Source: a virus. Taken from it: a DNA stretch of 23,934 nt. The stretch covers positions 1 to 23,934 of the IMG/VR virus record IMGVR_UViG_3300006101_000068. One strand, given 5' to 3'. Positions 3,305 to 5,180 of the stretch are shown in pieces; position 1 is the stretch's first letter, and every line of letters starts with the position of its first letter. The translations under genes were made by a program, and so were the position numbers. The notes under the pieces are model-generated. The model was not told the origin of the DNA. It saw nothing but the letters and a program-made list of their open reading frames with translations, and made no database searches.

Positions 3305-3491
3305 CTTGCGAATCGGTTTCTCTATGCAAGCCCCATATTCCATAGTATTCGGAAATGCGTCTTTCGTTGTTCTGTGGTATCTTTCCATTTAAATCACCTG
3401 TGATTGTTAGTGCTTGGTTGATGATGTGTGCGGGATATTGAATGCCAACCCGCACTTGATCTAGGATTAGGTTGGCTTGTTCTTTTGTCAT
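3288..3491 (-). CDS. hypothetical protein, 67 aa
   Basis: Small protein whose ATG shares its A with the preceding TAA (TAATG junction), so coupled translation is likely. It begins MTKEQANLILDQVRVGI, a helix, then QYPAHIINQALTITGDL and a polar C-terminus with two Tyr and Trp residues. There is no membrane segment, no cysteine and no recognised motif. It belongs to the short-gene cluster behind the second leftward promoter cassette. Confidence 0.65.
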   Translation of the reverse strand: MTKEQANLILDQVRVGIQYPAHIINQALTITGDLNGKIPQNNERRISEYYGIWGLHRETDSQDVYET

Positions 3492-3715
3492 TAATAATCT
3501 TGGCCATTGCGTGCGGGCGCGGCACCTAAGAATTCAACATTCAAAGGCGCATCGTATTTCCAAGAAACCGGTGTTTTATTTTCTTTAGATGTAAACATAA
3601 TAAAAGGGCGATTGCCTTTTAATAATTCACGGGCGCTATCTAAAGCATCTTGCACAGTTGCGTATTCAAAATGTTGCAATGTGTCTTGTGTTTCTAAAAT
3701 GTATGATTTTTTCAT
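3491..3715 (-). CDS. hypothetical protein, 74 aa
   Basis: First gene after the second leftward promoter/leader cassette (3727-3794). The N-terminal strand MKKSYILET is followed by the helix VQDALDSARELLKGNRPF and a second half with MFTSKENKTPVSWKYDAP. The alternating beta-alpha-beta look would suit a small single-domain protein; I recognise no family. The ribosome binding site is weak (AAAG), so the leader structure upstream may affect its translation. Confidence 0.7.
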   Translation of the reverse strand: MKKSYILETQDTLQHFEYATVQDALDSARELLKGNRPFIMFTSKENKTPVSWKYDAPLNVEFLGAAPARNGQDY

Positions 3716-3726
3716 CTTGCTACTTT

Positions 3727-3794
3727 CTTAAAAGACCGCTTACGATGTGTTGCGGCATGATTGTTATTGTATAGCCATCTAAACATCTAAACAT
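3727..3794 (-). promoter_or_regulatory. leftward promoter and leader, copy A
   Basis: Contains a -10 box TACAAT (3771-3766) within a block that matches copy B (4852-4873) at 20 of 22 positions. The -35 is weak (ATGTTT at 3794-3789, 17-bp spacer). Two CTAAACAT units follow each other with an 8-bp period inside the spacer/-35 region, a likely regulator site. Downstream, GCCGC (3756-3752) can pair with GCGGT (3739-3735) around a 12-nt loop, directly followed by CTTTTAAG. This lies in the 107-nt gap between the methyltransferase and the 74-aa gene and should drive the genes from 3715 leftward. Confidence 0.65.
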
Positions 3795-3822
3795 AGGACA
3801 AACCCTAATTTTTTAAAATAAA

Positions 3823-4809
3823 TTAAATATTGTTGTTTTTTTCACTATCGTTGATTTTTTGTGTTGCCTTGCGCCAATCGCCCTTGCAAAACACCAAAAC
3901 GTTTTGATGCACTTTGGCCATCTTTCGGCCTATTTCAAATTGCTTTGTCACGCGCATGGCGGCCGATCCAACCGATGTCGCTAGTATCGCCTCGTTATAT
4001 AGCCGTGCCCCGCATATTTCAAAGGCATTAATTGTTTCGCTAACAAAGTTTCTATAAAAGCCCTTTTTATCGCGGAAATCGCCCACCACAAAGCACGCAA
4101 ACGAATCATCCTTTAGCGCCCTAACGGATCGCCAAATAATCCGCCTATAAGCCGCTAGAAAGGCGTGGAAATCCATGTTTGATAAATCTTGTGGGTGATC
4201 CGAATACACCTCCAAATCGCCATAAGGCGGGCAACTAAAGATGAAATCCGCATCCGGCAATTTCGTTTCCATGCTATCGCCACAAACCCATTGGGGCTTA
4301 ATTTTTGTATTAATATCGTTGGCTTGGATGATATTGGCATCAATTTGTTCTTGCCTTAAATCACACCCCCAATAATTCCGCCCCATAGCACCCGCCACAA
4401 TCCCCCGCACCGATCCACCGGCAAAGGGATCAACCACTAAGCCGCCCAAAGGGCAAAACCATTTGTAGGCCAATTCCGATAGCACCGGATCAAACACCGA
4501 TGTTGCCCCAAGCCCTTGGGCACCGCCGCTTAGATCATTCTTTTTGATCCAATCCGTTGTATTAAATGTGTGCGCGTATTTTTTCCGGTTGTGATACCAA
4601 ATGGTGCTTTCGCTAGATTCCATTAGGTTTTCCCCCCGCCCCACCTCCGATTTAATCCCCAACGCAATCCACGCCCTTTTTCTTTCTTGCCATTCGCCCG
4701 ATTGGGCATTTAATATTGTGAATGGCGGCAATATAAAACGTTGGTTAATAACGCTTTCCGCATTAGGCTTAACAACATCGCCGAATAAATCAACACCATA
4801 TAAATCCAT
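3823..4809 (-). CDS. phage DNA methyltransferase (N6/N4 amino type), 328 aa
   Basis: Predicted S-adenosylmethionine-dependent DNA methyltransferase. Motif I for cofactor binding is VVDPFAGGS (residues 125-133) and the catalytic motif IV is FSCPPYGD (191-198), of the S/DPPY type used by N6-adenine and N4-cytosine enzymes. The order is motif I before motif IV. The N-terminal ILPPFTILNA...W.ERKRAW block and SVFDPVLSELAYKWF before motif I recur in a phage methylase family. There is no restriction partner, so protection from host restriction or regulation of phage DNA is more likely than a restriction-modification pair. I start at 4809 (AAGGA 7 nt upstream); the frame is open to about 4872, but that would run into the promoter. 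Target sequence unknown. Confidence 0.88.
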   Translation of the reverse strand: MDLYGVDLFGDVVKPNAESVINQRFILPPFTILNAQSGEWQERKRAWIALGIKSEVGRGENLMESSESTIWYHNRKKYAHTFNTTDWIKKNDLSGGAQGLGATSVFDPVLSELAYKWFCPLGGLVVDPFAGGSVRGIVAGAMGRNYWGCDLRQEQIDANIIQANDINTKIKPQWVCGDSMETKLPDADFIFSCPPYGDLEVYSDHPQDLSNMDFHAFLAAYRRIIWRSVRALKDDSFACFVVGDFRDKKGFYRNFVSETINAFEICGARLYNEAILATSVGSAAMRVTKQFEIGRKMAKVHQNVLVFCKGDWRKATQKINDSEKNNNI

Positions 4810-4817
4810 TTTGATTT

Positions 4818-4849
4818 CCTTAAAAAGACCACGATATGTGGATTGTGGT
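4818..4849 (-). promoter_or_regulatory. leader hairpin of the leftward operon, copy B
   Basis: ACCAC (4849-4845) can pair with GTGGT (4832-4828) around a 12-nt loop, followed at once by CTTTTTAAGG, which includes the methyltransferase ribosome binding site. Copy A at 3727-3756 has the same layout with changed but still pairing bases. A shorter alternative stem CCAC/GTGG with a 5-nt loop (4841-4829) is also possible. If transcription starts about 7 nt after the -10, part of the long 5' arm would not be transcribed, so the shorter stem may be the RNA form. It may act as an attenuator or a 5' mRNA stabiliser. Confidence 0.5.
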
Positions 4850-4851
4850 GT

Positions 4852-4880
4852 ATTGTATAGCCTACTAAACATCCATGCAA
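4852..4880 (-). promoter_or_regulatory. leftward early promoter
   Basis: TTGCAT (4880-4875), a 17-bp spacer and TACAAT (4857-4852) make a good sigma70-type promoter reading into the methyltransferase and the recombination operon. CTAAACATC lies in the spacer. The -35 is only three bases from the -35 of the divergent cro-type promoter, so one bound repressor could cover both. Confidence 0.75.
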
Positions 4881-4883
4881 TAG

Positions 4884-4912
4884 TTGATTTGTATATTTAA
4901 CTAAACTATAAT
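4884..4912 (+). promoter_or_regulatory. rightward promoter of the cro-like gene
   Basis: TTGATT (4884-4889), 17 bp and a perfect TATAAT (4907-4912). The expected start of transcription, about 7 nt on, falls at 4919-4920, the first base of the ATG at 4920. TAGTT (4881-4885) and AACTA (4899-4903) form an imperfect inverted repeat over the promoter, and a further CTAAAC unit lies at 4901-4906; both are operator candidates. Confidence 0.75.
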
Positions 4913-4919
4913 ATGGCTT

Positions 4920-5078
4920 ATGACATTAAACAAAGCAATCGAATGTGCCGGATCAAAGGCGGAATTGGCGCGTATCCTTGGAATAACTAGGGGCGCGGTT
5001 AGCCAATGGGTTGAAATCCCTATGGCCCGTGTGTGGCAATTACAACTTTTACATCCGGAATGGTTTTTGTTTAGTTGA
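4920..5078 (+). CDS. Cro/YdaS-like helix-turn-helix repressor, 52 aa
   Basis: A 52-residue DNA-binding protein of the Cro/YdaS type. The helix-turn-helix is plain: SKAELARILGITRGAVSQW (residues 12-30), with the classic Ala in helix 2, Gly in the turn and VSQW in the recognition helix. After it, IPMARVWQLQLLHPEWF is the usual second part of this family. It lies between divergent promoters, where lambdoid phages keep cro, and probably represses one or both of them. No Shine-Dalgarno can be placed, and the -10 ends 7 nt before the ATG, so the mRNA seems leaderless. An ATG at 4913 is out of frame and soon stops. No CI partner is seen in the window. Confidence 0.85.
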   Translation: MTLNKAIECAGSKAELARILGITRGAVSQWVEIPMARVWQLQLLHPEWFLFS

Positions 5079-5084: not shown

Positions 5085-5095
5085 GATTTGAAACG

Positions 5096-5153
5096 CGGCT
5101 AGGGTAGCTCCCGAAAAGACGATTCGTTACCGTCCTGCCGATGTTTTCTTTTT
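5096..5153 (+). promoter_or_regulatory. structured leader RNA with U-rich tail (attenuator candidate)
   Basis: The 102 nt between the cro-like and replication genes can fold into a nested structure. CGGC (5096-5099) pairs with GCCG (5137-5140), AGG (5101-5103) with CCT (5134-5136), GTA (5104-5106) with TAC (5128-5130), and CGAA (5112-5115) with TTCG (5123-5126) around a 7-nt loop. A T-rich run (5142-5153) follows within 2 nt, as in intrinsic terminators. It could be an attenuator, an antitermination RNA or a small RNA. The pairing was found by eye; no energy was computed. Confidence 0.5.
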
Positions 5154-5180
5154 AACGCAAACCGAAAAACGTAAGGTTAT

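What the first reader, a model, noticed from the sequence alone, without database searches (positions are those of the whole stretch)
3727..4880. Duplicated leftward promoter-leader cassette with a covarying hairpin
Seen: 3766-3787 and 4852-4873 match at 20 of 22 positions (ATTGTATAGCC, two changed bases, CTAAACATC), covering the -10. Downstream, both leaders place an inverted repeat with a 12-nt loop before CTTTT(T)AAG. The arms are GCCGC/GCGGT in copy A and ACCAC/GTGGT in copy B: two positions differ, but pairing is kept in each. This is what a selected RNA (or symmetric protein site) would show. Inference: an attenuator, a polymerase-binding antitermination RNA of the HK022 put kind, or a 5' stabilising hairpin, shared by two early transcripts. 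Caveat: in copy B the likely transcription start lies within the 5' arm, and a shorter stem is possible.
Basis: partly seen in the sequence, partly recalled or inferred. Interest (0 to 1): 0.72.

Follow-up and report, generated by a model that had tools for sequence, protein, structure and literature searches.

The report
Shared hairpin leader of phage early genes
Two early genes of this uncultured phage start with the same repressor-controlled promoter followed by a small RNA hairpin that evolution has kept paired in well over a hundred related environmental phages, probably as a cap-like structure at the very front of the message that protects it from decay.

Summary
Both copies match at 20/22 positions. 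That block is a Cro-type operator dyad (TGTWTAG-N4-CTAWACA) fused to the -10 box. Downstream lies a short hairpin, then a U-rich stretch, a Shine-Dalgarno and the ATG.

Relatives anchored on the adjacent P22-Cro-like gene, not on the leader, carry the hairpin at 67 of 70 loci. Its third pair is C-G, A-U, G-C or U-A in 75 distinct sequences with no break; the inner helix covaries too (shuffles 0/500). The stem starts 9-10 nt after the -10 and ends mostly 15-19 nt before the ATG.

When Cro and its operator change, the hairpin stays. It also sits behind several other operator types and before dozens of unrelated small early genes. The U-tract is often broken, so an attenuator is unlikely. A put RNA has two stem-loops in ~70 nt, so this is not one.

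Best reading: a portable 5'-terminal mRNA hairpin, most likely stabilising; a conserved A-N3-C pentaloop leaves protein recognition open. It is absent from Rfam and, at the sensitivity used, from GenBank phages and sampled genomes.

The parts
3768..3785 (-). Copy A operator dyad TGTTTAG-ATGG-CTATACA overlapping the -10
   Evidence: Sequence; class I operator co-segregates with the Cro recognition helix across relatives
3766..3771 (-). Copy A -10 hexamer TACAAT (predicted); predicted RNA start about 3758-3759
   Evidence: Stem start lies 9-10 nt after TACAAT in the family; TSS inferred, not measured
3736..3755 (-). Copy A hairpin CCGC-A-AC-ACATC-GT-AA-GCGG (outer 4 bp, inner 2 bp, pentaloop ACAUC)
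   Evidence: Fold, R1 hit at 3719-3774 60.5 bits, covariation
3723..3735 (-). Copy A U-rich stretch UCUUUU and Shine-Dalgarno AAGAAAG
   Evidence: Sequence
3491..3715 (-). 74-aa early ORF behind leader A
   Evidence: ORF list; no Pfam or PHROG hit
4854..4871 (-). Copy B operator dyad TGTTTAG-TAGG-CTATACA overlapping the -10
   Evidence: Sequence
4852..4857 (-). Copy B -10 TACAAT, with TTGCAT 17 nt upstream as -35 (read by eye); predicted RNA start about 4844-4845
   Evidence: Sequence; spacing
4829..4841 (-). Copy B hairpin CCAC-ATATC-GTGG (corrected register)
   Evidence: Fold of the isolated arm region, R1 hit at 4812-4860 48.5 bits, sibling L019/L162
4816..4828 (-). Copy B U-rich stretch UCUUUUU and Shine-Dalgarno AAGGAA
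   Evidence: Sequence
3823..4809 (-). DNA N6/N4 methyltransferase gene behind leader B
   Evidence: PF01555 E 8.8e-11; PHROG 498 E 1.9e-74
4890..4907 (+). Third, degenerate operator TGTATAT-TTAA-CTAAACT in the spacer of the cro promoter
   Evidence: Sequence; promoter TTGATT-17-TATAAT at 4884-4912
4920..5078 (+). P22-Cro-like regulator, 52 aa; -10 ends 7 nt before its ATG, so its mRNA is probably leaderless
   Evidence: PF14549 E 7.5e-11; spacing conserved in relatives

Best explanation
Each copy is a compact early-expression cassette: a sigma-70-like promoter whose -10 is embedded in the operator of the phage's Cro-like protein, then a ~42-nt 5' UTR made of a short hairpin, a U-rich linker and a Shine-Dalgarno sequence. 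Shown: the dyad, the hairpin with covariation, fixed spacing from -10 to stem and from stem to ATG, and conservation across operator types and unrelated downstream genes. Inferred: the transcript begins 2-4 nt before the stem, so the hairpin caps the 5' end; it impedes 5'-end-dependent decay (RppH/RNase E pathway) and thereby gives early mRNAs a longer life, whatever gene follows; the Cro-like protein represses both leftward promoters and its own, probably leaderless, message.
For: Covariation: in the cro-anchored set pair 3 is CG 57, AU 7, GC 6, UA 5 with no broken pair among 75; inner helix GC/AU and CG/AU, 100% paired; shuffles 0/500; partners slid by 1-3 columns pair in only 26-64% of cells on the two sets. 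Switches occur inside several Cro clades. Position: first stem C 9 or 10 nt after TACAAT in 75 leaders, the remainder mostly alternative folds of the same sequences; stem end to ATG mostly 15-19 nt. Gene-independence: leaders precede dozens of clusters of unrelated small early ORFs. Operator-independence: same leader with TGTWTAG..CTATACA, GTTAA..TTAAC, CACAATTGTG, TTAAGCTAGCTTA, TATAAG..CTTATA and other dyads. Structure rather than sequence: some copies use CCC-GCAA-GGG or CCC-UUCG-GGG, known as very stable tetraloops. Literature: a 5' hairpin can stabilise mRNA in E. coli and impedes RppH; purified B. subtilis RppH needs at least two unpaired 5' nucleotides (PMC3997798).
Against: No start site is mapped. 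A few copies without a visible promoter lie between genes (L082:4553, L098:8278, L112:1485, L047:2417), so an extreme 5' position is not universal; there the hairpin could act so only after cleavage upstream. The loop is more conserved (A...C at its ends in 64 of 74) than a mere cap would need. Folding energy is only mildly below shuffles (mean z -0.54). Half-life effects cannot be computed.
Confidence: 0.5

Rival explanations
1. The hairpin is a binding site for a phage or host RNA-binding protein that reads the A-N3-C pentaloop and marks early phage messages, for translation control or for a nut-like effect on RNA polymerase.
For: Predicted loops begin with A and end with C in 64 of 74 distinct leaders, and 57 of 74 loops are exactly 5 nt; the loop was not part of the Cro-protein search. 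The element is shared across immunity groups, as a common factor would require.
Against: Promoterless copies carry GCAA, UUCG, UAAC or UUU loops. The loop middle is free, and no candidate protein was identified. The U-rich stretch resembles a boxA core only loosely and is replaced by TAATTAAG or TACTTTAAGG in relatives.
Confidence: 0.22
2. Translation element: the hairpin ends at about -17 relative to the ATG, near the upstream edge of the ribosome footprint, and keeps the U-rich ribosome-binding site insulated or acts as a standby site.
For: Stem-to-ATG distance mostly 15-19 nt; U-rich linker before the Shine-Dalgarno; found also in front of internal genes without promoter.
Against: Predicted openness of the -14..+3 region is the same with and without the hairpin (0.61 vs 0.63).
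Confidence: 0.15
3. Promoter-proximal attenuator: the hairpin plus U-tract is a weak intrinsic terminator controlled during infection.
For: In 50 of 75 leaders at least four consecutive T fall in the 8 nt after the stem.
Against: The other 25 lack it while the stem is kept; stems can be 3-4 bp; L189/L207-type leaders have TAATTAAG after the stem. The terminator scan finds no terminator on the minus strand here.
Confidence: 0.06
4. RNA-only antitermination of the HK022 put kind.
For: Sits directly behind the leftward early promoters, as putL does.
Against: put RNAs are ~70 nt with two stem-loops (PMC9378689); here there is one short hairpin followed at once by the ribosome-binding site.
Confidence: 0.04

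Closest known systems
5'-terminal stabilising stem-loops of bacterial mRNAs (ompA, papA type)
   Same: Short stem-loop at the predicted extreme 5' end, gene-independent action expected
   Different: Here a conserved family of hairpins repeated across phages and operons with a shared loop signature; stabilisation not measured
HK022 putL/putR
   Same: RNA element directly behind an early promoter
   Different: put has two stem-loops in ~70 nt and binds RNA polymerase; here one 13-25-nt hairpin
lambda-type nut sites (boxA/boxB) and rrn boxB-boxA
   Same: Hairpin with a pentaloop next to a UCUUUUA-like stretch, in early leaders
   Different: Order is hairpin first; loop is A-N3-C rather than GNRNA; the boxA-like stretch is not conserved (nut and rrn features from my own knowledge)
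P22 Cro / lambdoid immunity operators
   Same: Cro-like protein (PF14549), divergent early promoters, dyad operators overlapping -10
   Different: No S24-type repressor and no integrase found in 20 related contigs

Membership tests
Conserved structured RNA (covarying hairpin) | Compensatory changes that keep pairing across relatives | tested here: met
   23 and 59 cells changed on both sides, shuffles 0/500; pair 3 in four Watson-Crick types with none of 75 broken
5'-terminal stabilising stem-loop | Stem within a few nt of the 5' end | tested here: inconclusive
   Stem starts 9-10 nt after the -10, implying 2-4 unpaired 5' nt; start sites not mapped; a few intergenic copies lack a promoter
5'-terminal stabilising stem-loop | Prolongs mRNA half-life | not testable with these tools
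   Needs experiment
HK022 put RNA | Two stem-loops in about 70 nt | tested here: not met
   One hairpin, then SD and ATG 15-19 nt on; definition from PMC9378689
Intrinsic terminator / attenuator | GC-rich stem followed by a U-tract | tested here: not met
   U-tract missing in 25 of 75 leaders; no minus-strand terminator called in the window
lambda-type nut site | boxA followed by boxB with a GNRNA-like pentaloop | tested here: not met
   Hairpin precedes the boxA-like stretch, loop A-N3-C, stretch variable
Cro-type operator regulated promoter | Operator specificity follows the regulator's recognition helix | tested here: met
   Site I found in 50 and site II in 13 of 66 distinct loci, never both, split by Cro clade; binding itself not tested
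Rfam families | Match to a curated covariance model | tested here: not met
   No hit at either leader even at E up to 5

The most novel reading that the evidence does not exclude
A phage-specific RNA leader, independent of immunity type and of the gene it serves, whose pentaloop is read by a dedicated factor, so that early messages of a large uncultured phage group carry a common RNA tag that sets them apart from host messages for stability, translation or antitermination.
Probability: 0.22. Interest if true: 0.75.

Novelty: new variant of a known kind. Interest (0 to 1): 0.55.

Why it matters
It is, as far as I could check, an undescribed structured RNA motif found in well over a hundred environmental phage contigs. 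It is kept while operators and downstream genes are exchanged, which shows that phages of this group carry expression signals as interchangeable modules. If it stabilises messages, it gives a natural series of 5' caps for testing 5'-end-dependent decay, and a ready-made portable leader. It also marks early genes of uncultured phages for annotation.

Tried and rejected
Third copy in the window: none.

Cellular relatives: the cassette pattern in 84,980 genomes gave a Pseudoalteromonas locus and scattered matches that lack the hairpin-SD-ATG layout. R1 found none in 369 class-level genomes and the operator-free pattern none in 399 phylum-level genomes. Both samples are small and carry no positive control.

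GenBank phages: the consensus leader found only chance-level hits, and R1/R2 found no leader in the nearest records MW202520, MW202674, MEP301, P26218, MW202462 and Vibrio K242.

The GCCGC..GCGGTCTTT pattern alone returned many unrelated contigs and was not used as evidence.

A 5'-AUG leaderless mini-ORF (AUGCCCUAG/UGA) was considered; it is not kept (AAGCCC, CAGCCC and CAAUCC leaders).

MAFFT misaligned some cro-anchored hairpins (A4), so A3 was counted instead; A3 was fitted to the model's structure and leans towards it, whereas A1 was not.

The hairpin does not make the ribosome-binding site more open in silico.

A paper search for a phage leader hairpin of this kind returned nothing matching by title or abstract.

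Full report
The window is a 23.9-kb virus record with a P22-like head-closure gene, a rightward block (P22-Cro-like gene 4920-5078, DUF1376 replication gene, RusA) and a leftward block (methyltransferase, 74-aa ORF, ERF annealing protein, YqaJ nuclease). The nearest GenBank phages by protein are uncultured Manatee Spring phages, Methylophilales phage MEP301 and Rhodoferax phage P26218. A betaproteobacterial host is therefore likely, as an inference.

Observation. The two 22-nt blocks match at 20 of 22 positions and are the only two in the window. They read GATGTTTAGnnGGCTATACAAT on the minus strand. TGTTTAG-N4-CTATACA is an imperfect dyad of 7-bp half-sites. A degenerate version (TGTATAT-TTAA-CTAAACT) fills the spacer of the rightward cro promoter TTGATT-17-TATAAT. 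The duplicated block is therefore best read as an operator fused to the -10.

The hairpin in copy A is CCGC-A-AC-ACAUC-GU-AA-GCGG.

Relatives. The exact 22-mer pattern finds 7 IMG/VR stretches. A looser operator plus GGTCTTT pattern finds 77, many with two or three copies. By my estimate only a few would be expected by chance; the same pattern on 257 Gb of genomes gave 41, most of them one unrelated Pseudoalteromonas locus. A set of 36 non-redundant leaders, in which only the GGTCTTT side was fixed by the search, has an invariant CC opposite GG, and pair 3 as CG 22, GC 5, AU 4, UA 3, UG 1 and one mismatch.

To remove the search bias, loci were fetched with the Cro-like protein instead (161 relatives, 80 kept). 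The model finds a leader in 67 of 70 distinct loci, usually on the divergent strand about 100-150 nt before cro. Two of the three missed loci (L189, L198) show the hairpin by eye. On 75 distinct leaders pair 3 is CG 57, AU 7, GC 6, UA 5 with none broken. The two inner pairs covary (GC/AU and CG/AU) with none broken. 59 cells change on both sides against 15 in shuffles, 0 of 500 shuffles reaching it. That alignment was fitted to the model, so the unfitted A1 result is the cleaner test; both agree. The changes recur within several Cro clades. Relatedness still inflates counts.

Anatomy. In nearly all leaders with TACAAT the first stem C lies 9 or 10 nt after it; the outliers are mostly alternative folds of the same sequence. 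The ATG follows the stem by 15-19 nt as a rule. With a start 7-8 nt after the -10 the transcript would begin 2-4 nt before the stem; this is inferred. The loop is five nt in 57 of 74 and begins with A and ends with C in 64 of 74. The tail is less constant: TCTTTTTA, TCTTTTAA, TCTATTTA, TCTTTAAG, TACTTTAA and others, with four consecutive T in 50 of 75. Contigs G002 and G003 (45 and 47 kb) have three copies each, all on one strand within a few kb.

Independence from operator and gene. Cro proteins with the TR[AGM]AV[HNS] type of helix go with class I operators (50 of 53 loci by the patterns used). The NQ.KLAKILG clade (helix mostly ..AVC[QR]W, with AVSQW and AVNRW members) goes with GTTAA..TTAAC operators (13 of 13). 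No locus has both. The hairpin persists in both. The upstream dyads include CACAATTGTG, TTAAGCTAGCTTA, TATAAG..CTTATA and TGTTAA..TTAACA; 18 of 104 have a perfect 6-bp or longer dyad against 4.4% in shuffles. The downstream ORFs form dozens of unrelated clusters, mostly 30-120 aa. A few copies lack a visible promoter and sit between genes, with minimal stems closed by GCAA, UUCG, UAAC or UUU.

Mechanism. An attenuator is disfavoured by broken U-tracts and 3-4-bp stems. put is disfavoured by architecture (PMC9378689). A specific DNA-binding site for the arms is disfavoured by sequence and spacing variation. Insulation of the ribosome-binding site is not visible in silico. A 5' cap against decay fits the fixed distance to the start, the independence from operator and gene, and the replacement of loops by stable tetraloops. 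A 5' hairpin is known to stabilise mRNA and to impede RppH (PMC3997798). The conserved loop ends and the promoterless copies are the main points it does not explain; a loop-binding factor and a translation role therefore stay open.

Novelty. The leader has no Rfam match, no GenBank phage match at blastn sensitivity, and no match in the sampled genomes (no positive control). A paper search gave nothing matching. The kind, a short structured 5' leader, is known; this family and its modular spread across phages are, as far as I could check, undescribed.

Limits. There are no transcript data; the contigs are metagenomic and partly fragments; the host is unknown; the cro-anchored set covers close relatives of one Cro family.

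Noticed in passing
window 5092-5158 (+): int-alpA RNA (RF02996, 43.8 bits) lies between the cro-like gene and the replication gene; it recurs behind cro in 7 of 20 relatives scanned. It may be part of the same early circuit.
   Followed up: partly
window 4907-4920 (+) and the cro promoters of L159-L238: The -10 of the cro promoter ends 6-7 nt before the ATG in most relatives (TATACT+6 in 39 loci), so the cro mRNA is probably leaderless, in contrast to the hairpin leader of the divergent transcript.
   Followed up: partly
window about 3793-3808 (-); most L159-L238 loci: A second inverted repeat, TTAGGG-N4-TCCTAA or alike, lies upstream of the leftward promoter in copy A and in most relatives: perhaps a site for another regulator.
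   Followed up: no
20 related contigs of 22-67 kb: No tyrosine integrase (PF00589) and no S24-type repressor (PF00717) was found, although a Cro-like regulator is present: perhaps Cro without lysogeny.
   Followed up: partly
L082:4553-4590, L098:8278-8315, L112:1485-1522, L047:2417-2454: Promoterless intergenic copies follow directly after a second hairpin with a UUCG loop (such as CGGGGCTTCGGCCCC), giving two stable hairpins in tandem between genes.
   Followed up: no
leaders of L079, L205, L168 and others: The predicted 5' end AUG-CCC/CCU followed by UAG, UGA or UAA would spell start-proline-stop at the very 5' end in several leader classes, but not in all.
   Followed up: no
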